DNA of 21,626 bases from a virus. The stretch lies in the IMG/VR virus record IMGVR_UViG_3300006917_000174, positions 1-21,626 of that record; one strand, given 5' to 3'. Of the stretch, positions 297-21,509 are shown in pieces. Made by a program: the position numbers and the translations under genes. The notes beneath the pieces were generated by a model. It worked only from the letters and a program-made list of their open reading frames with translations, did no database searches and had not been told where the DNA came from. Positions within the stretch are counted from its first letter, which is position 1, and each line of letters begins with the position of its first letter.

Positions 297-769
297 TAGT
301 TTGGCCGTCCTTTTGGTGTATAGGTTCGTAAAATCTCTTCGAATAATTCATTGGTCGGTTCGGATGTTTTGGCAACAGCCGCATTATTCGATAATTCTTT
401 TGTGACATTCTGATATAATTTTTCATTATCGTATAAATTAACTGACCACGTCAAATATTCGCTGACCAGTAATGGTGATAAAAGAGCAACAGTTATCACC
501 ATTCCGCTTTCAATAAAATGCGCGTTATCATCGGTAAGTAACAACCACCGGCTAAACTTCGCCTTGATCTGTGTCATGCCAGAATCTCTGGACTCTTCTG
601 CCTTAAATGTTAGCATTAAAGGATTGCAAATCAAGACACCATAATTTTCTCGATGACGATATGCCGTACAAATAATCTCATCGCCCGTTATAAATTTCAC
701 AACAACCGGAGATGAATTATATAGAGGCTTATACTCTATTAAATCTAATTTTTTAAAATCAATAATCAT
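296..769 (-). CDS. Small protein with Sm/Hfq-like strand pattern
   Basis: A 157-residue protein of no assured function. Residues about 19-55 (SPVVVKFITGDEIICTAYRHRENYGVLICNPLMLTF) resemble Sm/Hfq-like barrels: a VVKFITGDEI strand, a turn, then GVLICNPLML. A later hydrophobic stretch, SGMVITVALLSPLLVSEYLTW (88-108), would be a further strand/helix or a weak membrane segment. Small proteins of this type next to uvsW and gp55 are familiar from T4-like marine phages. It is tightly coupled at both ends: ATGA overlap with the uvsW C-piece and TAATG overlap with gp55. RNA binding is only a guess from the fold. Confidence 0.55.
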   Translation of the reverse strand: MIIDFKKLDLIEYKPLYNSSPVVVKFITGDEIICTAYRHRENYGVLICNPLMLTFKAEESRDSGMTQIKAKFSRWLLLTDDNAHFIESGMVITVALLSPLLVSEYLTWSVNLYDNEKLYQNVTKELSNNAAVAKTSEPTNELFEEILRTYTPKGRPN

Positions 770-1105
770 GCATGTTCCTTTACTTGGTGGGCAAATAACT
801 CAACAGGGAAGGATTCCTGTTCATAAAATGATGAACGATGACCCCAATGTTTTATGCTATAGTTAGTATATTCGATATGATGCGCATCGTCAATGATGTC
901 CATCACATAGACAATTTTCTTGGATGCATGAAGACGCAGCCCACGACCGATGCTTTGTAATACTCGGTAACGACTTTTGGAAGGTGACGCGAACACCACA
1001 TGATGAATCCGTTTCACATTGACGCCTGTGGAAAATGTTCCGTCAATAGGACGCGATCAAAATCGCGTCCTTAACCACCTCTCTAGATATATTTGTTGGT
1101 TTCAT
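766..1105 (-). CDS. uvsW: UvsW helicase, C-terminal part, read in two frames
   Basis: ATG at 1105 has a strong GAGGAAATT Shine-Dalgarno and encodes MKPTNISREVVKDAILIASY before a TGA at 1045-1043. In the +1 frame the sequence continues GTFSTGVNVKRIHHVVF at once. Joined, AILIASY+GTFSTGVN is helicase motif V, and QSIGRGLRLH is motif VI, followed by the UvsW C-terminal region (VYVMDIIDDAHHIEYTNYSIKHWGH). A +1 slip at TAT-TGA-C would give one extra Asp. A GTG at 1017 could start the 83-residue second frame alone, without a Shine-Dalgarno. It may be a functional partner of the N-piece, a programmed frameshift product, or a decaying gene. Its TGA overlaps the next ATG (ATGA). Confidence 0.75.
1049..1070 (-). 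repeat. Perfect 9-bp inverted repeat before the TAT-TGA-C site
   Basis: Minus-strand GGACGCGAT (1070-1062), loop TTTG (1061-1058), ATCGCGTCC (1057-1049). The arm ends exactly one base before the TAT codon of the possible frameshift site. It lies inside conserved motif V codons (DAILIAS), so it may be partly accidental. Confidence 0.7.
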
Positions 1106-1133
1106 AATTTCCTCATGTGTTATAGTATATCAT

Positions 1134-1165
1134 AAAAAAAGGGGAAGGTAACATATACCTTCCCC
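1134..1165 (-). terminator. Rho-independent terminator after the virion-type gene
   Basis: A perfect 10-bp stem (1141-1150 with 1156-1165, GGGGAAGGTA on the plus strand) around a 5-base loop, followed on the minus strand by seven T residues (1140-1134). It ends the structural gene 25 bases past its stop and separates it from the uvsW C-piece. Confidence 0.93.
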
Positions 1166-1189
1166 CTCAACGTTTAATTAACGACCAGA

Positions 1190-1978
1190 TTACTCAGGAA
1201 GAATCGTGTCGTCACTCGCGTCAGACGTAATCGATTTCATGGCAACAAGAGTCTCATATTGTACGCGATTGCCGAACGCCTTACGAAGCACCCAACCGGC
1301 TGATGTAACCTTCATCTGCTCCGTGGTGAGCGCAGCCGTAGCAGTCGCACCCGTGCCGCCGCCACCAAACGATACGGACGGGGCGCTCGTGTATCCGGTG
1401 CCATTCGCCGTAATAGTGACTGCGGCCACACCGAAGGAAAGGTCAAGCTTTAACCCGGTTCCTGAACCTCCGGTTGGAGTGTTATTAGCCAGCGTTGGCA
1501 ATGCGGTATATGAACCCGCCGCATTAATTGACAAGGTCAACACACCACCGGTTGAATTTGTCGTCAAGATGTTGGCCTTAGCCGCAACGGTTGACGTGCC
1601 ACCAGCAATGGTCACAACCTCACCATTTGCGTATGCGGAGCCGCCACCACCACCACCAAGGGCCACGGTCACAACTTTCGCCGTTGCCGTTGCCGTCGCA
1701 TTAGTCGTCGCCGCACCAGCAAATGCGACGGTCGGTCGAACGGTAAACCCAGACCCCGGTGCTGTGACGGTTACCGCAGAAACGCCGCCCAATGAGTCTA
1801 CCATTTCCGCAGGAGATACCCCAAAGGTGCCAACGGTCGCCCCTGTGATGAACGCACCCGATGTCACATTATTAAACAAGTTTGCTTGATTTTCTGTATT
1901 TGCGGTCTTATTGACATAAGCGGTCGCCCAGATTGGTGACGAATTTGCTCTATCAATTTTGCCCCATTGCTTTGACAT
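1190..1978 (-). CDS. Glycine-rich virion-type protein (beta repeats)
   Basis: A 262-residue protein opening SKQWGKIDRANSSPIWA and ending WVLRKAFGNRVQYETLVAMKSITSDASDDTILPE (positions 229-262); this head and tail recur in a structural protein of T4-like marine phages. Between them are three beta repeats at about 68-100, 146-181 and 186-216, each with a core like ITANGTGYTSAPSVSFGGGG, and a run of six glycines at 108-113. It is probably exported into the virion surface or tail, function unknown. CGAGGG lies upstream of the ATG. It has its own promoter box and a strong terminator and sits between the two parts of uvsW. Confidence 0.72.
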   Translation of the reverse strand: MSKQWGKIDRANSSPIWATAYVNKTANTENQANLFNNVTSGAFITGATVGTFGVSPAEMVDSLGGVSAVTVTAPGSGFTVRPTVAFAGAATTNATATATAKVVTVALGGGGGGSAYANGEVVTIAGGTSTVAAKANILTTNSTGGVLTLSINAAGSYTALPTLANNTPTGGSGTGLKLDLSFGVAAVTITANGTGYTSAPSVSFGGGGTGATATAALTTEQMKVTSAGWVLRKAFGNRVQYETLVAMKSITSDASDDTILPE

Positions 1979-2022
1979 AAAAGGTGCCCTCGTGAAAAAA
2001 GTTAACTACGGTAAAAAAAGTT

Positions 2023-2169
2023 CTACCCTTCATTATTTAGTATCCACGAATCGGCTACATCATCATCGGTTGTTATGTCTGACGCTGGTTTTGAATCACC
2101 ATTTGTGAGCGGTACTAATTCTGTCGGCACACACCGCACGTATTTTTCACCAAATGTCAACAGAATATG
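2023..2169 (-). other. Hint/intein-like tail on the UvsW N-terminal part
   Basis: Residues 392-439 of the uvsW N-piece. Two readings fit. (a) Block A from Cys404: CVPTELVPLTNG then DITTDDDVADS aligns without gaps to gp41-8-type IntN openings, with T-N-G at positions 10-12 and an Asp at 24. (b) Block B: HILLTFGEKYVRCVPTE resembles the strand L-x-x-G-x-x-x-R-C-T-P-x-H, with Thr and His replaced by Val and Glu. No matching IntC or HN-C/S/T junction is visible before the C-piece, so this would be a remnant. Confidence 0.4.
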
Positions 2170-3342
2170 CTCGGGCTGCTCTAGAAGATTGCGCACTCGC
2201 TCACGACTTTCAGCCGAGACACCGCCACTCACGTAGTACACAGGTCGCGTCCCCTGTACATGCGCCTTCATCTTTTCAAATAAGGGTTTCCCGTGTTTTT
2301 CCACAAAAGTAAACAGCACGAGAACGTTTCCGGGCAGTTGCCCTACAAAGTTCACCAGCCAATCCATACGTCCCGAATGCTGAATAAAATAATCAACCTC
2401 ATCCCGATAATTGCGTTTATGTTCACGCACAAACCATCGTTCATAGTCGGAGTATTCCAAGACATGACCTTGAATTTTAATAGGGGTCAAATGCCCTATT
2501 TTTTGTAAATCAGCAGTCTTTGCAACACGATGGGCTGGCCCAAATGCGCCTTCAACCATTAATTTATTTGATTTCGCGTCATCCAATGTTCCAGTGACGC
2601 CAATCCGCACGGCGCAATCAGGCAACTTTCCCATGATATCTCGTAAGGATTCCGCCTTAAATAAATGTGCCTCATCACCAAAAATGGTCTGATACCGACT
2701 AAACCATTTCTCTGGTTGTTTGAAAATGGACTGCCATGTCGAAATGACGACAGGTTTTTCTGTATCTTTCGGTCGTCCCCCCATGATAATATGAACACTG
2801 TCATCAACCGTGTTCCAGCCGTAATCATACCAATCCTGCAACATTTGCGTAACCAAGGAAATATTTGGCACGACTAACAGTACCGGCCCGTGCGACATTC
2901 TGGCGCGAACCATATAATATAGCACAAGGCTTTTACCTGAAGCGGTGGGCGATAAAATCACACACCGTTGTTGATGTAGGGCATGTGTGATAGCGTCTTT
3001 CTGGTAGCTACGCACGTCGAACGGAACCGGATGGGCGTTGATCAATGCTTCGGTTTGCAAGGCCGTCCAGCCGCTTGTGGACGCAGGCAAACGGTTCTCT
3101 ACAGAGTAGCCGCGTTTCTTCGCCCACGTCATGATCTTTTGCGCGAGTCCTGCGTAGATCAGTTTTGTTGTGCGGTTGTATAGCCGTATGTGTCCGTTCC
3201 ACCCACGGCGAAACTTTTTCATGTATTGTGCGCCGGGAACCACAAAACTAAATTCATCGGATAATTCCCGCTCGATGGATTCTGGGCACCATACGTAACA
3301 ATACGCTTGATTATAGGGAGCTATGACAATATCAGCGGTCAC
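2023..3342 (-). CDS. uvsW: UvsW helicase, N-terminal part, with a non-helicase tail
   Basis: A 439-residue piece of the UvsW superfamily 2 helicase (T4 about 500-590). Start is GTG at 3342, with AAGGAT before it and GTGA overlap with uvsY. Residues 108-118 (FDVRSYQKDA) hold the Q-type motif, SPTASGKSLV (131-140) is Walker A, FGDEAHLF (221-228) is DEAH motif II, and GVTGTL (248-253) is motif III. The second RecA-like domain begins (VLVLFTFVEKHG, YYVSGGVSAESRERV) but stops at about Glu391, before motifs V and VI. Residues 392-439 do not match a helicase and look Hint-like. Motifs V and VI are found at 1041-766 instead. On its own this piece should lack helicase activity. Confidence 0.9.
   Translation of the reverse strand: MTADIVIAPYNQAYCYVWCPESIERELSDEFSFVVPGAQYMKKFRRGWNGHIRLYNRTTKLIYAGLAQKIMTWAKKRGYSVENRLPASTSGWTALQTEALINAHPVPFDVRSYQKDAITHALHQQRCVILSPTASGKSLVLYYMVRARMSHGPVLLVVPNISLVTQMLQDWYDYGWNTVDDSVHIIMGGRPKDTEKPVVISTWQSIFKQPEKWFSRYQTIFGDEAHLFKAESLRDIMGKLPDCAVRIGVTGTLDDAKSNKLMVEGAFGPAHRVAKTADLQKIGHLTPIKIQGHVLEYSDYERWFVREHKRNYRDEVDYFIQHSGRMDWLVNFVGQLPGNVLVLFTFVEKHGKPLFEKMKAHVQGTRPVYYVSGGVSAESRERVRNLLEQPEHILLTFGEKYVRCVPTELVPLTNGDSKPASDITTDDDVADSWILNNEG
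2034..2041 (-). promoter_or_regulatory. Late promoter box ACTAAATA before the virion-type gene
   Basis: Minus-strand ACTAAATA inside the last codons of the uvsW N-piece, 55 bases before the ATG at 1978. It gives the inserted structural gene its own late promoter. Confidence 0.65.
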
Positions 3343-5744: not shown

Positions 5745-5752
5745 TATTTATG
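5745..5752 (-). promoter_or_regulatory. Late promoter box CATAAATA abutting the kinase-like gene
   Basis: Minus-strand CATAAATA overlaps the stop region of the endonuclease gene and ends 6 bases before the next ATG. No Shine-Dalgarno is present. As with the portal box, transcription would start at about the ATG itself. Confidence 0.55.
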
Positions 5753-7127
5753 GTTTCTGATATAACCAGACCGTCTGCCCCGCATCCCACAATCTTCGAT
5801 AACCATTCGCAAACATGTTCTCGGCTTCGGTTAATTGCGCATCGAAATTCAGAAATTTCTTGGCTAACTTATGTTTCTGAAATAATAACCGCGAATACAT
5901 CACTCCATCCAACACATACCCATAACCGGGTGGCGTTGTATTTATTAATTGAAATCCTAATTCTGAGTAAATATTGCCCGTAAACAACCGTCTGTCGGCG
6001 TATGACACCATTGTGTCACCACTGGTCATATACTGAATAATTCGCGCCCATAACCGTTGTGCGCCTCCAATAACGGTCGTATGCGTCTTGACGGCTAGAC
6101 GTAGCAGTTCCCACGAATGTTGGGAAAATCTCGATTCGCCTATCGTTAATACCATCACCAATTCATGTTGTAGATAGAGTCCCACCGCATGTTTATATGG
6201 ACAAAACCCTTGAATATGGTTCGCATTCAAAAATGTACGGCATTCATCGAGCGTCGGTTGGCCTACGGTACAGCGTCGAGCGCCAACACACGTCGTGGTT
6301 TTCACACATCGAGCGATAATAGATTTACAAATGTCGGGTGTGGTGTTCCATTCAGTATCCCAAAATTGTAACAGATGGATGCCCACCGCTGCGGCCATGT
6401 CATGTTTTTTCGCATGTCTTCGGCGCTGTTCTGTCGTTTCGGTGGTATTAAAACTGTGCCAATAGGTTCCGTGGTATTCAATACCAAGCTTATATTCCGG
6501 TAAATAAATGTCTATCTCATACGGCGCAATACATTGTCTGTCCCGGCGTATGATATGTTGTATGCCCAATTCTTGTAAATATTCTACGATTTGGTCTTCA
6601 CCGCCGGTATATTGCACTATATGTTGGGTGGGCACAATACCATGTTCATGAAAGATGCCCGTCATGAATGATTGTGAACAACCCATGTCTTTCGCAATTT
6701 GCGTGAGGGTTTTCTGTTGGTTCTGCGCAATCAACCAGTCTTTATCATCTAACAGTTCTGGTGCAGTATAATGACGACGTTTTGATTCACGCATAGACTC
6801 CGATATCGTGTGTCTATACTCAGGGTCTGCCCATAGCGCAGTTATTTTTTGACGTATATTGTTGACAAATGAAGGATCATTACGCACATCTTTCATGCGT
6901 GAACGATAAGACTCATCCGTCCATCGACGTTTTAGCGACTGCGACCGTTTCTCGCGGGATTCATCAGAATGCATGGTTTGCAACGACGGCGTTGTATGAT
7001 AGGCTTCTTTCATCCGTTCTGATTGCGCCTTGCGTTCTTGTTCAGACTCATACCGGCGTCGTGCAGCGTCACGCAGTTTTTGAATATGTTCTGGGCTTTT
7101 CTTTTGGCCGGGAGATCCTTTAGGCAT
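5748..7127 (-). CDS. Vsr-like (EDxHD) homing endonuclease with NUMOD3-like repeats
   Basis: A 459-residue protein. Residues 1-120 hold basic repeats (KKSPEHIQKLRDAARRR, SDESREKRSQSLKRRW) of NUMOD3 type. Residues 128-164 look like a helix-turn-helix (TLTQIAKDMGCSQSFMTGIF). The nuclease core at about 175-260 has Y-E204-I-D206-I-Y-L-P-E, then G-I-E217-Y-H-G-T-Y-W-H224-S, the E-x-D...E...H layout of the Vsr-like EDxHD family (I-Bth0305I; also the family described with fractured phage genes). The C-terminal 180 residues are a domain often attached to this nuclease, function unknown to me. Its ATG overlaps the stop of the HNH gene (TAATG), so the pair is co-translated. Having two different endonucleases in tandem is unusual. 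Confidence 0.85.
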   Translation of the reverse strand: MPKGSPGQKKSPEHIQKLRDAARRRYESEQERKAQSERMKEAYHTTPSLQTMHSDESREKRSQSLKRRWTDESYRSRMKDVRNDPSFVNNIRQKITALWADPEYRHTISESMRESKRRHYTAPELLDDKDWLIAQNQQKTLTQIAKDMGCSQSFMTGIFHEHGIVPTQHIVQYTGGEDQIVEYLQELGIQHIIRRDRQCIAPYEIDIYLPEYKLGIEYHGTYWHSFNTTETTEQRRRHAKKHDMAAAVGIHLLQFWDTEWNTTPDICKSIIARCVKTTTCVGARRCTVGQPTLDECRTFLNANHIQGFCPYKHAVGLYLQHELVMVLTIGESRFSQHSWELLRLAVKTHTTVIGGAQRLWARIIQYMTSGDTMVSYADRRLFTGNIYSELGFQLINTTPPGYGYVLDGVMYSRLLFQKHKLAKKFLNFDAQLTEAENMFANGYRRLWDAGQTVWLYQKP

Positions 7128-7978
7128 TATGAAATCTTTCTGACGCGGTAACCTTTGGTGTGGCCATAAACTGTAAGATTACCTTGACTGAGCTTATGTT
7201 CCAAACAATACTGGCGAAGATTGGTAATGACTAATACTTCACCTGATGGTGTAATAACTTCCCATGTTGCAGAGTTAACTTCTGTTGCCCTTTTCTTTTG
7301 ATGTTCGGTCTGTTTCTTTCCTCTATGTTTATCAGCAATTCTTTTGATAATCTCAGACGAATGCCTATACGGGTTATTTCTTTTAGTTTCGCTGATACGC
7401 TTTCGTGTTTCTTCGGACGGCGTTTTACCAAGATTTACGCCGGGATGAGATTTATAATATTCTTTATTGGCAGCAGATATCTTTTGTTTAACTTCTTCGG
7501 TTAATGGAGAACGTTTGGCACCCAATCCATTCGTGTTACCTTTCATACGTTCCGATTGCTTAGTAATTTCATCGGGGTCTTGCCAACGAGCATACGCTGC
7601 TTGTCTAAGCTTTTCTTTATGATCATCTGACTTCAGAACACCTCGCAATCTTTCACTCTGCAAAAGAGCCAATTCCTTTTTATGATACTCATACGTTCTA
7701 GATTTAGAAAGATGCCATCCAGTATTACGTGTACCAGATGATGTCGGGAAGAACATCATATGAAATGCATAACGAAGTTTGTAATTAGTCGGATAAACCT
7801 TCGTAAGAATCCAATGCGCGACGAAATGTTGTCGAGCAGTGAGAACCACTATGTTGTCTTGGGAATCGTCGCCATCCATGCATTTCGGAATAATGTGATG
7901 AGATTCTGTGTATTCGTCGGGCGGAAGTTGTTGTTTGGCGTGTTTAATTAATTTTTCGTAGAGTAATTGATAATTCAT
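7127..7978 (-). CDS. HNH homing endonuclease with NUMOD3-like repeats
   Basis: A 283-residue free-standing homing endonuclease. The N-terminal HNH domain reads ESHHIIPKCMDGDDSQDNIVVL and ARQHFVAHWILTK: His27/His28, Asn42 and His51 give the fold's metal-binding and catalytic residues. Residues about 115-245 carry several short basic repeats of NUMOD3 type (S-x-E-x-x-x-K-I-S, with KRSPLTEEVKQKIS and GKTPSEETRKRIS as the clearest). The C-terminal WEVITPSGEVLVITNLRQYC...GYRVRKI is a NUMOD1-like DNA-binding module. I chose the ATG at 7978; an upstream in-frame TTG at 7996 has no better signal. No strong Shine-Dalgarno. The gene is more AT-rich than its neighbours and lies behind the capsid terminator, a usual place for such elements. 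Confidence 0.88.
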   Translation of the reverse strand: MNYQLLYEKLIKHAKQQLPPDEYTESHHIIPKCMDGDDSQDNIVVLTARQHFVAHWILTKVYPTNYKLRYAFHMMFFPTSSGTRNTGWHLSKSRTYEYHKKELALLQSERLRGVLKSDDHKEKLRQAAYARWQDPDEITKQSERMKGNTNGLGAKRSPLTEEVKQKISAANKEYYKSHPGVNLGKTPSEETRKRISETKRNNPYRHSSEIIKRIADKHRGKKQTEHQKKRATEVNSATWEVITPSGEVLVITNLRQYCLEHKLSQGNLTVYGHTKGYRVRKIS

Positions 7979-8037
7979 ATATGTAGTATATAACAAAGAA
8001 ATTTATTATGCAAGACCTATTTTATATCGAAGAAAAG

Positions 8038-16660: not shown

Positions 16661-18808
16661 TTAGCCTAGATTTGTGACGACTTCATTAAACGCCACATCC
16701 GAACGCACCGCCACAAAATTCAGGGCAATGAAGTTGATGCTGTGAATTGGCTTCACGTAAATATCGGCCCGGAACTCACCGCGATCAATCGCGTCCTTCG
16801 GATTGTTTGTTTCATCACACACCACATAAAAATCAGTGATGCCACGACGACCCTTGACTGAGCGAAGATACGGCTCAACCAATGAAACAAACGCTTGACG
16901 TGTGTAGGAATCGTTTTGCTCGAATAACTGCTGTTCAGCCGAACGCTTGATTGTCTTTTCCAGCACAATGAAGAGCCGACGAACATTGATACGGTCAAAC
17001 GCACTGGGCTTGTTCAGCAAGGTCTTATCGCCATACAATACCGTGCCCTGACCGGGGAAGGACACCACCGGGTTAATACCATTCCGATACAGATCGTCAC
17101 GTTGTGCCTGATTTGGATTAAATGGTAACTTCACCACGTTCTTAATCTGGCCGCGTGAGAAACCGGCTGGTGAGAACCACGCTTCTGAAGTCTGATCCGT
17201 ACGAACCGCGCAACCGGCCACATCGCCATTGAGCGGAACATACCGATACATGTCGTTATACTTATCGTATTGATACTTCCAACCGCTATCTAACACAGCA
17301 TAGCTGGTCGAAGGCAGTCGATTACGATACGCAACGATATCGTCAACTTCACTACCCGCGTTCGATACTACCGCATCCTTATCGGGTGAGAAGAACGCCA
17401 TGGAGAACATCTTCGGCTCGACAATGTTTGAGATAATATACGTCGCTAATACAGAATTGGCGCTTGCACCTAACACAAACGAGGTTTCAACTTGTTCGCT
17501 GGCGAAGAAGTCATACCCACGCTCAAGGTCAGCAATGCTCACGTCGCCGCCGTCAACACCGCCATAGAGGCTGGACGCGTCAACAAGCACAGGGGCATCA
17601 AACGCGACCCCAGCAGCAGATGAACCCCAGTTTGTACCACTAACTGAATGATCTAACCACCACACATACTTGGAGTTACGATTCATGACCGTCTTGTAGT
17701 AGTTGTTGCCGCCGTTCTCGGTCTTGGCGTCAGCAGCCTTGCTCACGTAGCCGAACCGCTCAAGCACCGTCCCGGCCACACCGGTAAATTGACCATCTTC
17801 GTCAACAACCACGACGTGCATTTCATCTAATGAGCCGCCCATGGCTGATGCAAACGTTGATGTTCCCGGCGCACCATTGAACAAACTAGCATACTTCCAC
17901 TTCCGATCAAACGGCTGACCAGCTACATCCGAAGAAAACGCCGCACTAATGGTTGCCGCCGTACCGTTGGACGCCAATGTTGCAATTGAACGCTGTTCAC
18001 GCACAGACGCAACATTCACGGTGATAATATCACCAACCTGCATAAAGCCTGCGACGTTTGCCGCAAAGGTCACCGCAGTGCCGTTTGATGTAATGTTTGC
18101 ACTCACCACACCATTCGCAACACCTGTAGAGCCAAGCTGTGCATACGCATTCGCACCTGAGCAGATTTCGACGCGCAAGCTGTTGCCCAACACACCGGGA
18201 TACTTAGCTGACCAATTTCCAGTTGATGCTTCACCGTTCTGGAACGTGGCATCATAATGGTCTTGGTTTTTGACATATAAGCCATACGAAAAACCATTAC
18301 CAGAGGTGACAGCAGTCGATGGAATATTTGTTAGTAAAATCGCCGTTGAATTTGTCACAGACGAAACCGTTACGACTGCGTTTGCCGTAGCGTTCGAAAC
18401 ATTAATCGCTACGCCAGTGAACAGGCTCATAGCTTGGGCGTTCGCCCCAGCTACGGTCATCGTCTTGCTTGATGTATTAATCGTGAATGTCGCAGATGCG
18501 TTAATCGCCGTCGCGCTTACGCCCGATGTGGCGGCAAGTGCGTGTGATGGATTCACTACACGAACAACGCGCAATGAATTGCTGTAAGCTAAGAAGTTTG
18601 CAGCGGTAAAGAAATAATCAGCCGTGTTCGAATCTGGCTTCCAATATTGGTTGACTAAATCCTCTTCGGACGACACGGTATGAACTTCATCAACCGGACC
18701 CCACCGAAAATTACCTGCAATTGCACCCTCAGTCAGCGCAACCTGACCAATGGCTAATGTCTTATCAATTTCTGAAACTTTAATTCCGGGGCTGACTTGC
18801 GTTGCCAT
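16661..18808 (-). CDS. 18: Contractile tail sheath protein, gp18
   Basis: A 715-residue sheath protein (T4 gp18 is 659). The N-terminus, SPGIKVSEIDKT at 6-17, is the conserved opening that links sheath subunits. A core segment YVKNQDHYDATF...KYPGVLGNSLRVEIC (178-216) and the C-terminal half, with GQGTVLYGDKTL and a final D-V-A-F-N-E-V, are typical of T4-like sheaths. About 90 Ala/Thr/Asn-rich, beta-type residues (roughly 90-176) and a second such stretch (about 233-293) look like extra surface domains. The subunits assemble around the gp19 tube and contract during injection. It starts at an ATG with AGGAG Shine-Dalgarno and has its own late promoter box. High expression is expected for a structural protein. 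Confidence 0.95.
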   Translation of the reverse strand: MATQVSPGIKVSEIDKTLAIGQVALTEGAIAGNFRWGPVDEVHTVSSEEDLVNQYWKPDSNTADYFFTAANFLAYSNSLRVVRVVNPSHALAATSGVSATAINASATFTINTSSKTMTVAGANAQAMSLFTGVAINVSNATANAVVTVSSVTNSTAILLTNIPSTAVTSGNGFSYGLYVKNQDHYDATFQNGEASTGNWSAKYPGVLGNSLRVEICSGANAYAQLGSTGVANGVVSANITSNGTAVTFAANVAGFMQVGDIITVNVASVREQRSIATLASNGTAATISAAFSSDVAGQPFDRKWKYASLFNGAPGTSTFASAMGGSLDEMHVVVVDEDGQFTGVAGTVLERFGYVSKAADAKTENGGNNYYKTVMNRNSKYVWWLDHSVSGTNWGSSAAGVAFDAPVLVDASSLYGGVDGGDVSIADLERGYDFFASEQVETSFVLGASANSVLATYIISNIVEPKMFSMAFFSPDKDAVVSNAGSEVDDIVAYRNRLPSTSYAVLDSGWKYQYDKYNDMYRYVPLNGDVAGCAVRTDQTSEAWFSPAGFSRGQIKNVVKLPFNPNQAQRDDLYRNGINPVVSFPGQGTVLYGDKTLLNKPSAFDRINVRRLFIVLEKTIKRSAEQQLFEQNDSYTRQAFVSLVEPYLRSVKGRRGITDFYVVCDETNNPKDAIDRGEFRADIYVKPIHSINFIALNFVAVRSDVAFNEVVTNLG

Positions 18809-18892: not shown

Positions 18893-20134
18893 TTAGAAAT
18901 TATCGTCCCCAAATTCATCCTTGAAGGTTCCGCCTATCAGCCATGAAGAATCGTCGTCATACCCATTAATATCCATAATACCAAACGGAAATGGTTCAAC
19001 TTCTTTTGGTTTCGCATCAGGAAGAATGTTATGATGAGATGGCACATCATCATTTTCCGGAGCTTCCGTTTGGATATACGCATCTAATACACGCGCATTT
19101 GTAATTTCGGTGAAGTTTGGTTGGAGGGAAATCCATCCAAACATGACAAGCGGCATGACTAAGTCATCATGATGATTCACTTCGGCTCGATAGGTCGAAC
19201 CGGATTGGACGAATGCCGATAATTGTTGAATGATTCGATAGTCGTTCAAAATCAATTGTTTGTTTTCGACCAAGGCTTTAATCACGGCACACCCACTGCG
19301 CTTGACACCAGTGGTCATTCGCAATCCTAAATGCCGCTGCACACGAGAGTTGAATACCAACCGCTGCCCAAGCCACTTTTCTGTCATAGTGGCCATGAAT
19401 CGTGGATACTCAAAATCACGCCACATGATAAAGGCCACATCGCGTCCAATATCCATAACTTCAACCATCAGCCACGGCATATTATATCGTTTCGCATAAT
19501 GCATTAAAACTTGTGGGAACTCGATGGTGGATATTTTATTATTGGCATATGTGGCAACAACACGATATGGTATCTGTGTTACATCTGCAATAACAAACGT
19601 GGAGTAATCTAATCCTTGACCAGATGCCGTATCGACCAACATGATGTAATTATGGTCTTTTTCTGGTTCAAAGAATTCTGTATAACCATCTTCCGACGTT
19701 GATATCGGTTTTTTATGGACCAACGATTTCAACACATCGGGACGAATCAATGTATATTGTGTTGAAAGGAACGAACAATTATGAGAAATAACGCTGCCGC
19801 TATTATATAATGAACCATCAGCAACATTAATCGGGTCGAATACCCATTCTTCGTATGATGGTGAAATGTATGTGATAACATGATCGTGGTTATCTATACC
19901 ACAAATTTTAGTTCCATTAAAACAATCAGCTACTTTTAACCAACCAGTTGGTGTTAATAATAAATGTTCTAATGTAGCAACTAAAAAACTTCCGTCTTCA
20001 AATTCAAGTCTTTTTGCTAATTTTTTTTGTTTGTTGACCCCATCAAACTTTTTAAACCCCGAAGGTGTTAAAATCTCATACCGGTCATTCGCACGAAAAA
20101 TATTAGGCTGCATATAATTGTTCATATAAATCAT
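18893..20134 (-). CDS. 17: Large terminase C-terminal half (gp17 nuclease) preceded by intein C-fragment
   Basis: A 413-residue protein in the +1 frame relative to the ATPase half, overlapping its end by up to 32 bases. Residues 1-119 are an intein C-fragment; Cys120 starts the C-extein with CSFLSTQYTL, the sequence expected right after FAQEYE in an intact gp17. The RNase H-like packaging nuclease follows, with acidic residues in MLVDTASGQGLDYSTF (Asp168), LMVEVMDIG (Glu225) and NHHDDLVMP (Asp323/324), matching the D-E-D triad of T4 gp17. The C-terminal tail is acidic. Three in-frame ATGs (20134, 20125, 20113) could start it; none has a clear Shine-Dalgarno, so coupling to translation of the upstream half is likely. 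Confidence 0.94.
   Translation of the reverse strand: MIYMNNYMQPNIFRANDRYEILTPSGFKKFDGVNKQKKLAKRLEFEDGSFLVATLEHLLLTPTGWLKVADCFNGTKICGIDNHDHVITYISPSYEEWVFDPINVADGSLYNSGSVISHNCSFLSTQYTLIRPDVLKSLVHKKPISTSEDGYTEFFEPEKDHNYIMLVDTASGQGLDYSTFVIADVTQIPYRVVATYANNKISTIEFPQVLMHYAKRYNMPWLMVEVMDIGRDVAFIMWRDFEYPRFMATMTEKWLGQRLVFNSRVQRHLGLRMTTGVKRSGCAVIKALVENKQLILNDYRIIQQLSAFVQSGSTYRAEVNHHDDLVMPLVMFGWISLQPNFTEITNARVLDAYIQTEAPENDDVPSHHNILPDAKPKEVEPFPFGIMDINGYDDDSSWLIGGTFKDEFGDDNF
19778..20134 (-). other. Split-intein C-fragment (IntC) of the TerL intein
   Basis: 112-119 residues depending on which ATG is used. Visible Hint parts: YEILTPSGFKKFDGV near the start; a block B-like region LEFEDGSFLVATLEHLLLTPTGW (a T-x-E-H in place of the usual T-x-x-H); a late strand FDPINVADGSLY; and the splice junction VISHN before Cys. 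Counterparts in AceL-TerL are the I-L-S-P-N-G-F stretch, Y-D-P-I-N-V and V-V-S-H-N-C, so the two are close relatives. There is no room for an endonuclease domain. By hand count 19861-20100 is 78/240 G+C, against 78/180 for 20221-20400, so the intein is more AT-rich than its extein. Confidence 0.92.
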
Positions 20135-21011
20135 GTATCGTTATCATTCGTATATGACCAGTCAACGTATCACGAACGGTTAGAATAGTTTCAGGCCCAA
20201 CGCACTCGTACTCTTGCGCAAATTTCTCTGGACCGCCAATGTTACGAATCGTATCAAGCTTCCACGCCTCATCACGCCCCGGCACTTCACTCCAATGCAC
20301 GAACAATGGTTTGAAGTCGTTGTTTTTTTGTTCGGCATCCATCCAGAATTTATGAAAAAGATTCATACCATTCGGGGTGGACACCATAATAATTTTAGTT
20401 TCTTTACCGGAGGTAATGGTCGGGAATGTCGATGCATAAAATTCATTCGCGATGTTTTCTGGAACGAAGGCGAACTCATCAAGCAGAAGCACATTGTAAC
20501 TACCTCCACGAACGGCACTCGATGATGTGGCAGCAGCAAATGCGACGGAACCATTCGCTAATTCAATTTCAAGACGCGCCCAACGACGCACTCCTTGTTG
20601 AAGAAAACGCGGCAAATTTTCATAAGCTAGCTTTAATCGTCCTAATAAATCAACCGCAATCTTCTGTTTATTTGCCGAAATGCACACGCGCACATTCACA
20701 TTAAAGAGAATGTAATATAGGAAATAACCGATAACGGTTGTCGATTTCCCTACCTGACGGCTGCACATCGTGATGTTAAACCGATTCTCGTGATAATTGC
20801 GGACCATGTTCTCTTGAAATGGCCACATCTCAAACGGAACCAGCCCTTTATCTACATGAATAATCTTGACGTAATTTTTAATAAAATAAACAGGATCTTC
20901 TTTACACTTGACAAATTCCCGCAATTCATCGACGGTATAACTATATGTCGATTGAGCCGCAGGTAGTTGTTCGTTATTTTTAAACGGTGTTGCTTCTCGT
21001 TGTTTGCTCAT
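20103..21011 (-). CDS. 17: Large terminase N-terminal half (gp17 ATPase) with intein N-fragment
   Basis: A 302-residue protein. Residues 1-269 are the packaging ATPase of T4 gp17: adenine/Q-motif region around WPFQENMV (63-70), Walker A CSRQVGKST (83-91), Walker B VLLLDEFAF (174-182) and coupling motif STPNG (211-215). The helicase-like half ends at FAQEYE, exactly where gp17 relatives continue with a short C/A-F-L stretch into the nuclease. Instead, residue 270 is a Cys starting a 33-residue intein N-fragment that ends in a TAA stop. The nuclease half is in the overlapping downstream gene. The start ATG at 21011 has only weak Shine-Dalgarno potential. Inference: protein trans-splicing joins the 269-residue ATPase to the 294-residue nuclease, giving a 563-residue TerL (T4 gp17 is 610). 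Confidence 0.95.
   Translation of the reverse strand: MSKQREATPFKNNEQLPAAQSTYSYTVDELREFVKCKEDPVYFIKNYVKIIHVDKGLVPFEMWPFQENMVRNYHENRFNITMCSRQVGKSTTVIGYFLYYILFNVNVRVCISANKQKIAVDLLGRLKLAYENLPRFLQQGVRRWARLEIELANGSVAFAAATSSSAVRGGSYNVLLLDEFAFVPENIANEFYASTFPTITSGKETKIIMVSTPNGMNLFHKFWMDAEQKNNDFKPLFVHWSEVPGRDEAWKLDTIRNIGGPEKFAQEYECVGPETILTVRDTLTGHIRMITIHDLYEQLYAA
20106..20204 (-). other. Split-intein N-fragment (IntN) of the TerL intein
   Basis: Thirty-three residues from Cys270 of the N-terminal terminase gene to its stop. It opens CVGPETILTV, a Hint block A (Cys1, then T-x-L at positions 6-8), and closes with ITIHDLYEQL. AceL-TerL IntN is only about 25 residues, opens C-V-x-G-D-T and ends with a similar D-L-Y-x-x-L stretch, so length, insertion point and end sequence agree. 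Most natural split inteins have an N-fragment of about 90-100 residues, so this is the atypical kind. The upstream extein residues are Q-E-Y-E. Confidence 0.92.
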
Positions 21012-21020
21012 ACTATAATA

Positions 21021-21509
21021 TTACTGACGGTCTTTTGATATCATGCGCAATAGTTCTTCGCTCGTACCAGAAAACACGACACCTTGTTGAATGTTGACAC
21101 TACCGGGAGGTGGTGCGGAAATCGCCTTTGTGGCCAACCGTGTCTCAGCCGCAATTTTATGAATACTTTGTAATTCTCGATGTGCCTCTACGGTTGCCTG
21201 TACAAGCTTTGCGACGACTTCAAACGACCGTGGCGAGTCTGTTTGTGTCGCCACATCCGTTGCTCGATGTAACGCAGTTTGTGCATCTTCGACAATGCTC
21301 TTGATGGCAGTGCGTGAATATTCGAAATCTTCTTTCGCAATCTTTTCCTCGTGTGTTTCTTCGACCGGCGCTGGGGTTTGTGCTGCGTCTATAGTCTGCA
21401 AAGCCTGAATAGGTGACACATCAACGATGTCGTTTGTTGTCGGAGACACACTTTTCGTTTCAACAATTTCAAAAATCGCATCAAGGGTATCTTTTGTATT
21501 GTCATTCAT
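21021..21509 (-). CDS. 16: Terminase small subunit, gp16-like
   Basis: A 162-residue protein, close in size to T4 gp16 (164). The N-terminal third is Thr/Pro/Glu-rich and probably disordered. From about residue 59 there is a helical core beginning DFEYSRTAIKSIVEDAQ and running through PRSFEVVAKLVQATVEAHREL to about residue 120; this DFEY...PR.YEV pattern is typical of the gp16 family. In T4 gp16 forms a ring, recognises DNA and stimulates the gp17 packaging motor. It starts by TAATG overlap with the preceding gene and lies 9 bases before the large terminase, the usual pairing. The identification rests on the core pattern, the length and the neighbour. Confidence 0.85.
   Translation of the reverse strand: MNDNTKDTLDAIFEIVETKSVSPTTNDIVDVSPIQALQTIDAAQTPAPVEETHEEKIAKEDFEYSRTAIKSIVEDAQTALHRATDVATQTDSPRSFEVVAKLVQATVEAHRELQSIHKIAAETRLATKAISAPPPGSVNIQQGVVFSGTSEELLRMISKDRQ

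What the first reader, a model, noticed from the sequence alone, without database searches (positions are those of the whole stretch)
19778..20204. Atypically split intein divides the large terminase
The ATPase gene stops 33 residues after a Cys that opens an intein block A. The overlapping nuclease gene begins with an IntC ending VISHN|C. The exteins, ...FAQEYE and CSFLSTQ..., join into a normal gp17. Split position, insertion site and sequence all parallel AceL-TerL, an atypically split intein with a very short N-fragment. The intein has lower G+C than flanking sequence, suggesting transfer. Few complete phage contexts for this class are known to me, and packaging would depend on trans-splicing.
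Basis: partly seen in the sequence, partly recalled or inferred. Interest (0 to 1): 0.92.

Follow-up and report, generated by a model that had tools for sequence, protein, structure and literature searches.

The report
Split intein dividing a phage terminase
A T4-like virus makes its DNA-packaging motor as two overlapping gene halves that carry the two pieces of a self-splicing protein (an atypically split intein), so a working motor should form only after the halves find each other and are welded together; the kind is known, but this copy has lost the mobile nuclease gene that most of its relatives carry between the halves.

Summary
On the minus strand the TerL ATPase gene (20103-21011) ends with a 33-residue IntN, and the overlapping nuclease gene (18893-20134, +1 frame, 32-nt overlap) begins with a 119-residue IntC ending in HN|C. 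The joined exteins (563 aa) align without a gap across the junction to all 69 intein-free TerLs examined. The IntC matches Cat, the engineered consensus of AceL-TerL and GOS-TerL, and AlphaFold2 gives a confident HINT fold.

So this is a new member of the known atypically split TerL intein class, not a new class. Its gene layout is a minority form. Most relatives carry a homing-endonuclease-like gene between the halves, as does the window's sister L083. Two close-relative pairs show that gene missing between 10-bp direct repeats, while the intein itself had spread recently. The window most likely lost its nuclease gene the same way.

The class is not rare. At least 89 GenBank phage records hold a matching IntC. 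In Campylobacter phages PC5 and NCTC12673 the halves lie about 26 kb apart on opposite strands, yet would rebuild the Walker B motif. Trans-splicing itself is inferred and was not tested.

The parts
20205..21011 (-). TerL N-extein: ATPase half, 269 aa (Walker A CSRQVGKST, Walker B LLLDE)
   Evidence: Pfam Terminase_6N E=4.5e-16; T4 gp17 chains 3ezk/3cpe E=2e-44 to 2e-43
20106..20204 (-). IntN, 33 aa, Cys1...LYEQLYAA; stop codon at 20103-20105
   Evidence: Sister L083 has IntN CVGPKTWVTVRDRATGSITILNICDLYERLTAA* ending at the same residue
20103..20134 (-). 32-nt overlap of the two genes, +1 frame; possible IntC start codons ATG at 20134, 20125 and 20113
   Evidence: No Shine-Dalgarno before any of them, nor before several other genes of this contig
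19778..20134 (-). IntC, up to 119 aa, block B TLEH, ends VISHN
   Evidence: CatC 6dsl_B E=1.1e-7; alignments; AlphaFold2 HINT fold
18896..19777 (-). TerL C-extein: RNase H-like nuclease half, 294 aa, starting at Cys+1; stop at 18893-18895
   Evidence: Pfam Terminase_6C E=9e-12; gp17 nuclease domain 3c6a E=5e-30
21021..21509 (-). gp16-like small terminase, context
   Evidence: phrog_445 E=5.5e-18
16661..18808 (-). gp18-like tail sheath, context
   Evidence: phrog_23 E=1.9e-120

Best explanation
The locus encodes a class 1, atypically split intein of the AceL/GOS-TerL type inside the T4-like large terminase. Two proteins are made: ATPase-IntN (302 aa) and IntC-nuclease (about 402-413 aa), the second probably started at an ATG embedded out of frame in the last IntN codons, perhaps by translational coupling. 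IntN docks on IntC to complete the HINT fold. Cys1 and Cys+1 carry out the acyl shifts and Asn cyclisation releases the intein, joining ...QEYE to CSFL... as a normal 563-aa gp17. Most likely the intein arrived as a homing cassette with an endonuclease gene (HEG) between the halves, and that gene was later deleted, leaving overlapping, HEG-less halves. Shown: gene layout, homology, predicted fold, catalytic residues, extein continuity, foreign composition, and HEG presence/absence in close relatives. Inferred: splicing, coupling, and HEG loss in this particular lineage.
For: IntC matches solved Cat. The joined intein folds at pLDDT 95.3 and matches gp41-1, VidaL and Cat structures. IntC ends in HN in 74/74 distinct relatives and +1 is Cys in 73/74. 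The spliced product aligns ungapped with 69/69 intein-free TerLs. The same split recurs in dozens of loci with the IntN stop after the same helix. Sister L083 has an ORF between the halves (SH-aLRT 95). HEG+/HEG- pairs L120/L122-L137 and L140/L144 differ by the insert between 10-bp repeats; in L137/L120 and L144/L140 the inteins are near-identical while the exteins have diverged (synonymous differences 1/86 vs 98/307 sites, p=3e-11; 3/77 vs 86/222, p=3e-10). HEG-less split copies L122 and L137 show purifying selection (p=2e-5).
Against: No protein evidence of splicing. The window is a 21.6-kb fragment, so the rest of the genome is unseen. A +1 join would read ...LYEQLYAANIFRANDRYEIL..., a plausible contiguous intein, so the split in this copy rests on the DNA sequence of what may be a single virus population. 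HEG loss in this lineage is inferred from relatives; cis mini-inteins of the family also exist, so a frameshift of a cis form is another possible origin. L083's intervening ORF looks GIY-YIG by motif but has no Pfam hit.
Confidence: 0.88

Rival explanations
1. The intein is really contiguous and a one-base sequencing or assembly error breaks it.
For: One inserted or deleted base in the overlap would join the frames into a plausible mini-intein; cis mini-inteins of this family exist at the same site (L138, L156, L158, L125, L084).
Against: Three contigs agree, with one substitution elsewhere. The IntN stop is at the same residue as in sister L083, where an ORF lies between the halves. Independent relatives L116, L122/L137 and L130 have a similar HEG-less short-gap split.
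Confidence: 0.04
2. Programmed +1 frameshifting at GCC-UAA-U joins the frames and the intein splices in cis.
For: A stop codon in the A site with the IntC frame at +1 resembles known +1 sites (own knowledge of prfB).
Against: In HEG-less relatives IntC lies in the +1 (L116, L122, L097), +2 (L130, L144, L100) or the same frame behind a stop (L135), so no frameshift site is conserved. IntC has its own ATG codons.
Confidence: 0.03
3. Genes in pieces: ATPase and nuclease work as two chains and the intein fragments are dead remnants. The split is at the domain boundary, so this is conceivable, as for the mobE-split ribonucleotide reductase cited in PMC3322345.
For: By the HMMER alignment the junction falls near gp17 residue 354, about where the ATPase domain ends (domain limits from own knowledge).
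Against: Splice residues are nearly invariant; HEG-less split inteins are under purifying selection; relatives with the split inside Walker B, with halves even 26 kb apart, are isolated phages.
Confidence: 0.04
4. RNA splicing: a group I or II intron interrupts terL, as reported for Vibrio phage ICP1 in PMC10448857.
For: terL introns exist in phages.
Against: No Rfam match in 19000-21100 even at E<=1. The insert is read through by the two ORFs and encodes an intein fold with catalytic ends.
Confidence: 0.01

Closest known systems
AceL-TerL (25/104 aa) and GOS-TerL (37/115 aa), and their engineered consensus Cat-TerL (30/104 aa); figures from PMC11766414, S2 split position from PMC13014065
   Same: Host protein TerL, split after the first intein helix, short IntN, class 1 chemistry, HINT fold; IntC matches CatC (E=1e-7)
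   Different: 33/119 aa; about 27% identity to CatC; genes overlap by 32 nt; Cys1 (GOS has Ser1).
IMG/VR locus L083 (IMGVR_UViG_3300032164_000270)
   Same: Sister intein (IntC 46%, IntN ends at the same residue), same TerL site
   Different: Carries a 237-aa, GIY-YIG-like (by motif only) ORF between the halves
Fractured genes with split inteins and free-standing homing endonucleases (Dassa 2009, not held; cited in PMC3229294 and PMC10448857)
   Same: Essential phage gene divided by a split intein
   Different: No endonuclease gene between the halves in the window
VidaL (PDB 6vgv)
   Same: Short-IntN atypically split intein, similar predicted fold (TM 0.77)
   Different: Split earlier (S1, 16-aa IntN; PMC13014065)

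Membership tests
Atypically split TerL inteins (AceL/GOS/Cat) | IntC sequence homology to the family | tested here: met
   phmmer to 6dsl_B E=1.1e-7, aligned over query residues 12-121
Atypically split TerL inteins (AceL/GOS/Cat) | Split after the first helix (S2), IntN of about 15-37 aa | tested here: met
   IntN 33 aa; model helix 23-32, then the split
Atypically split TerL inteins (AceL/GOS/Cat) | Cys/Ser1, block B TxxH, terminal HN, Cys+1 | tested here: met
   C1, TLEH, SHN, C+1 present; HN in 74/74 and C+1 in 73/74 relatives
Atypically split TerL inteins (AceL/GOS/Cat) | HINT fold when the fragments are joined | tested here: met
   AlphaFold2 pLDDT 95.3; Foldseek to inteins including VidaL and Cat
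Atypically split TerL inteins (AceL/GOS/Cat) | Inserted in TerL, same site as AceL/GOS | tested here: inconclusive
   TerL: yes. Loci that I recognise as AceL-like (L121, L126, L139) use the same site, but the published AceL/GOS loci were not available
Atypically split TerL inteins (AceL/GOS/Cat) | Trans-splicing activity | not testable with these tools
   Needs expression of the two fragments
Fractured gene with HEG between split intein halves | Free-standing endonuclease gene between IntN and IntC | tested here: not met
   IntN stop and IntC start overlap; no intervening ORF
T4 gp17-type large terminase | ATPase plus RNase H-like nuclease domains, continuous once joined | tested here: met
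   Pfam, PDB gp17, ungapped junction
Group I/II intron in terL | Rfam intron model match | tested here: not met
   No match at E<=1

The most novel reading that the evidence does not exclude
HEG-less, overlapping split TerL inteins like the window's arise again and again when the endonuclease gene of a homing split-intein cassette is deleted between short direct repeats. Because the deletion leaves IntN and IntC out of frame, the phage is left dependent on trans-splicing for packaging with no mobile gene attached: an evolutionary dead end that nonetheless persists under purifying selection, and that in some cultured phages has let the two halves move to distant loci.
Probability: 0.55. Interest if true: 0.7.

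Novelty: new member of a known kind. Interest (0 to 1): 0.58.

Why it matters
The window adds a natural split-intein pair to the short-IntN class used for protein labelling. The comparison also shows that the class is common in phages, including cultured ones such as Escherichia phages HY03 and kaaroe and Campylobacter phages PC5 and NCTC12673. Whether DNA packaging really depends on protein trans-splicing can therefore be tested in laboratory phages. The close HEG+/HEG- pairs give a view of how split genes outlive the mobile element that travelled with them.

Tried and rejected
Rfam search for introns: nothing. IntN alone against PDB: too short, only chance hits. Pfam gives no match to IntC or the joined intein, and NCBIfam intein_Nterm stays below its cut-off, so ordinary annotation misses it. 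Shine-Dalgarno as a start-codon test: uninformative here. Promoter and terminator scans: no excess over shuffles. Window versus L083 dN/dS: saturated. UvsW as a second split intein: its tail has no intein match. A scan of cellular genomes found only two relatives, against more than 500 candidates in viral contigs.

Full report
What is there. The window is a 21.6-kb virus record with T4-like genes in T4-like order on the minus strand: gp16-like, terL, gp18, gp20, gp23 and others; the major head protein is closest to Synechococcus myovirus proteins at about 62%. TerL is encoded in two overlapping ORFs. The first, 20103-21011, holds the ATPase half (269 aa) and 33 further residues that open with Cys. 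The second, 18893-20134, holds 119 residues ending in VISHN and then the nuclease half (294 aa) starting with Cys. They overlap by 32 nt, the second in the +1 frame. Pfam and PDB searches confirm both TerL halves.

Is it an intein? IntC matches Cat, the engineered consensus of AceL-TerL and GOS-TerL, at E=1e-7 over nearly its whole length. The intein joined in silico by one +1 step, aligned with 55 fragments and cis relatives, gives an AlphaFold2 model at pLDDT 95.3 and pTM 0.87 whose best PDB matches are inteins: gp41-1, RecA, VidaL (TM 0.77), Cat. In 74 distinct relatives the last two IntC residues are HN in all, and +1 is Cys in 73. The joined exteins align without a gap over the junction to 69 of 69 intein-free TerL ORFs, 65 of which have Cys at +1. 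By the HMMER alignment the junction falls near gp17 residue 354, close to the end of the ATPase domain (the domain limit is from my own knowledge).

Is the split real in this copy? Two more IMG/VR contigs carry the same arrangement, with one substitution and no indel against the window over up to 6.2 kb. They may be the same population, so this argues against an assembly slip but does not exclude a very recent mutation. The stronger argument is comparative: the sister intein L083 has its IntN stop at the same residue, with an ORF of 237 aa lying between the halves.

Relatives and gene layouts. Of 74 distinct IntC rows, 44 were labelled as having a gap of 400 nt or more between the halves, usually holding an ORF; 4 have the extra domain fused to IntN in one ORF (Escherichia phage kaaroe, Vibrio VP-1 and 1.255 among them); 7 are contiguous mini-inteins; 9, including the window, are split with a gap under 200 nt and no ORF between; 4 have intermediate gaps; 2 are the Campylobacter phages described below; 4 could not be classed. 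I call the long-gap class HEG (homing-endonuclease gene), but each ORF was not verified: Pfam finds GIY-YIG, HNH_3, MTES_1575/DUF559, NUMOD3 or TnsA-like endonuclease domains in most of the ones tested, while L053, L120 and L083 gave no hit and L157 only a weak match to a domain of unknown function.

On the IntC tree (few columns, many open forks) the window pairs with L083 (SH-aLRT 95), and the HEG-less split state needs 9 changes for 9 rows, at least 6 forced by well-supported branches.

How HEG-less copies arise. Two groups of close relatives differ by the presence of the HEG. In L120 versus L122 the insert is bounded by ATTATAATTT, in L140 versus L144 by CTTATGAATT, with one copy (slightly changed in L122) left in the HEG-less allele. 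In L137/L120 the intein has 1 synonymous difference in about 86 sites against 98 in about 307 for the exteins (p=3e-11); in L144/L140 3 in 77 against 86 in 222 (p=3e-10). So the inteins moved between already diverged phages recently, which is most easily done by an active endonuclease, and the HEG is absent from one partner now: transfer, then loss, is the simplest order. L122 and L137, both HEG-less and diverged, keep an excess of synonymous change in the intein (p=2e-5), as expected if it still works. I infer the same history for the window. Its intein has GC3 0.229, below all 718 comparable coding windows of the contig. The ATG that starts L083's extra ORF lies 23 nt before the IntN stop in the +1 frame; the window has an ATG at the same place (20125), there in frame with IntC. 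This is suggestive only, because the conserved Leu-Tyr-Glu codons tend to create that ATG.

Wider consequence. In Campylobacter phages PC5 and NCTC12673 the ATPase half ends ...LIFIDE|CVAGDTKITVRNKKTGVIEDITMEELYNRIG* and lies about 26 kb from, and on the opposite strand to, an ORF reading ...NNFVSHN|CAFIDKWSEF.... Joined, they restore FIDECAFI, the Walker B region. That is a second insertion site in TerL, and it rules out a cis or frameshift explanation for those phages. The records I saw annotate these ORFs as terminase fragments or hypothetical proteins, or not at all; one paper noted an intein in the IBB_35 terminase (PMC3322345).

Known or new. The published examples are AceL-TerL (25/104), GOS-TerL (37/115) and the engineered Cat (PMC11766414; PMC13014065). 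The window is a new member, with the less common HEG-less overlapping layout. I could not read the original AceL, GOS and fractured-gene papers, so I cannot say whether their loci overlap too. Splicing, coupling and dependence of packaging on splicing are inferences.

Noticed in passing
L170, L171, L180, L181 (Campylobacter phages NCTC12673 GU296433 and PC5 KX229736): TerL halves about 26 kb apart on opposite strands, ending in IntN and beginning with IntC at the Walker B motif (FIDE|C...HN|CAFI); not annotated as inteins.
   Followed up: partly
L163, L164, L165, L167 (Straboviridae isolates): Escherichia, Yersinia and Pseudomonas T4-like isolates carry the same split TerL intein at the Walker B site with an endonuclease-like ORF between the halves (TnsA-like in HY03), or fused to IntN in kaaroe.
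   Followed up: partly
L100, L104, L107, L117, L118: Relatives with Ser1 and Cys+1, a pair described as known only for GOS-TerL (PMC10189870).
   Followed up: no
window 766-3342, minus strand: uvsW is also broken: the N part (2023-3342) ends in about 42 unrelated residues, an ORF with weak virion-protein hits (1190-1978) follows, and the C-terminal piece (766-1056) sits behind a short ORF out of frame by TGAC. Contig L185 is identical, so it is unlikely to be an assembly slip.
   Followed up: partly
window 5748-7127 and 7127-7996, minus strand: Two homing-endonuclease-like genes (MTES_1575/Vsr-like; NUMOD3/HNH) lie downstream of the major head gene.
   Followed up: no
L168, L173: Contiguous mini-inteins of the same family in TerL of Vibrio phage vB_VmeM-32 and a Nitratidesulfovibrio phage.
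   Followed up: no
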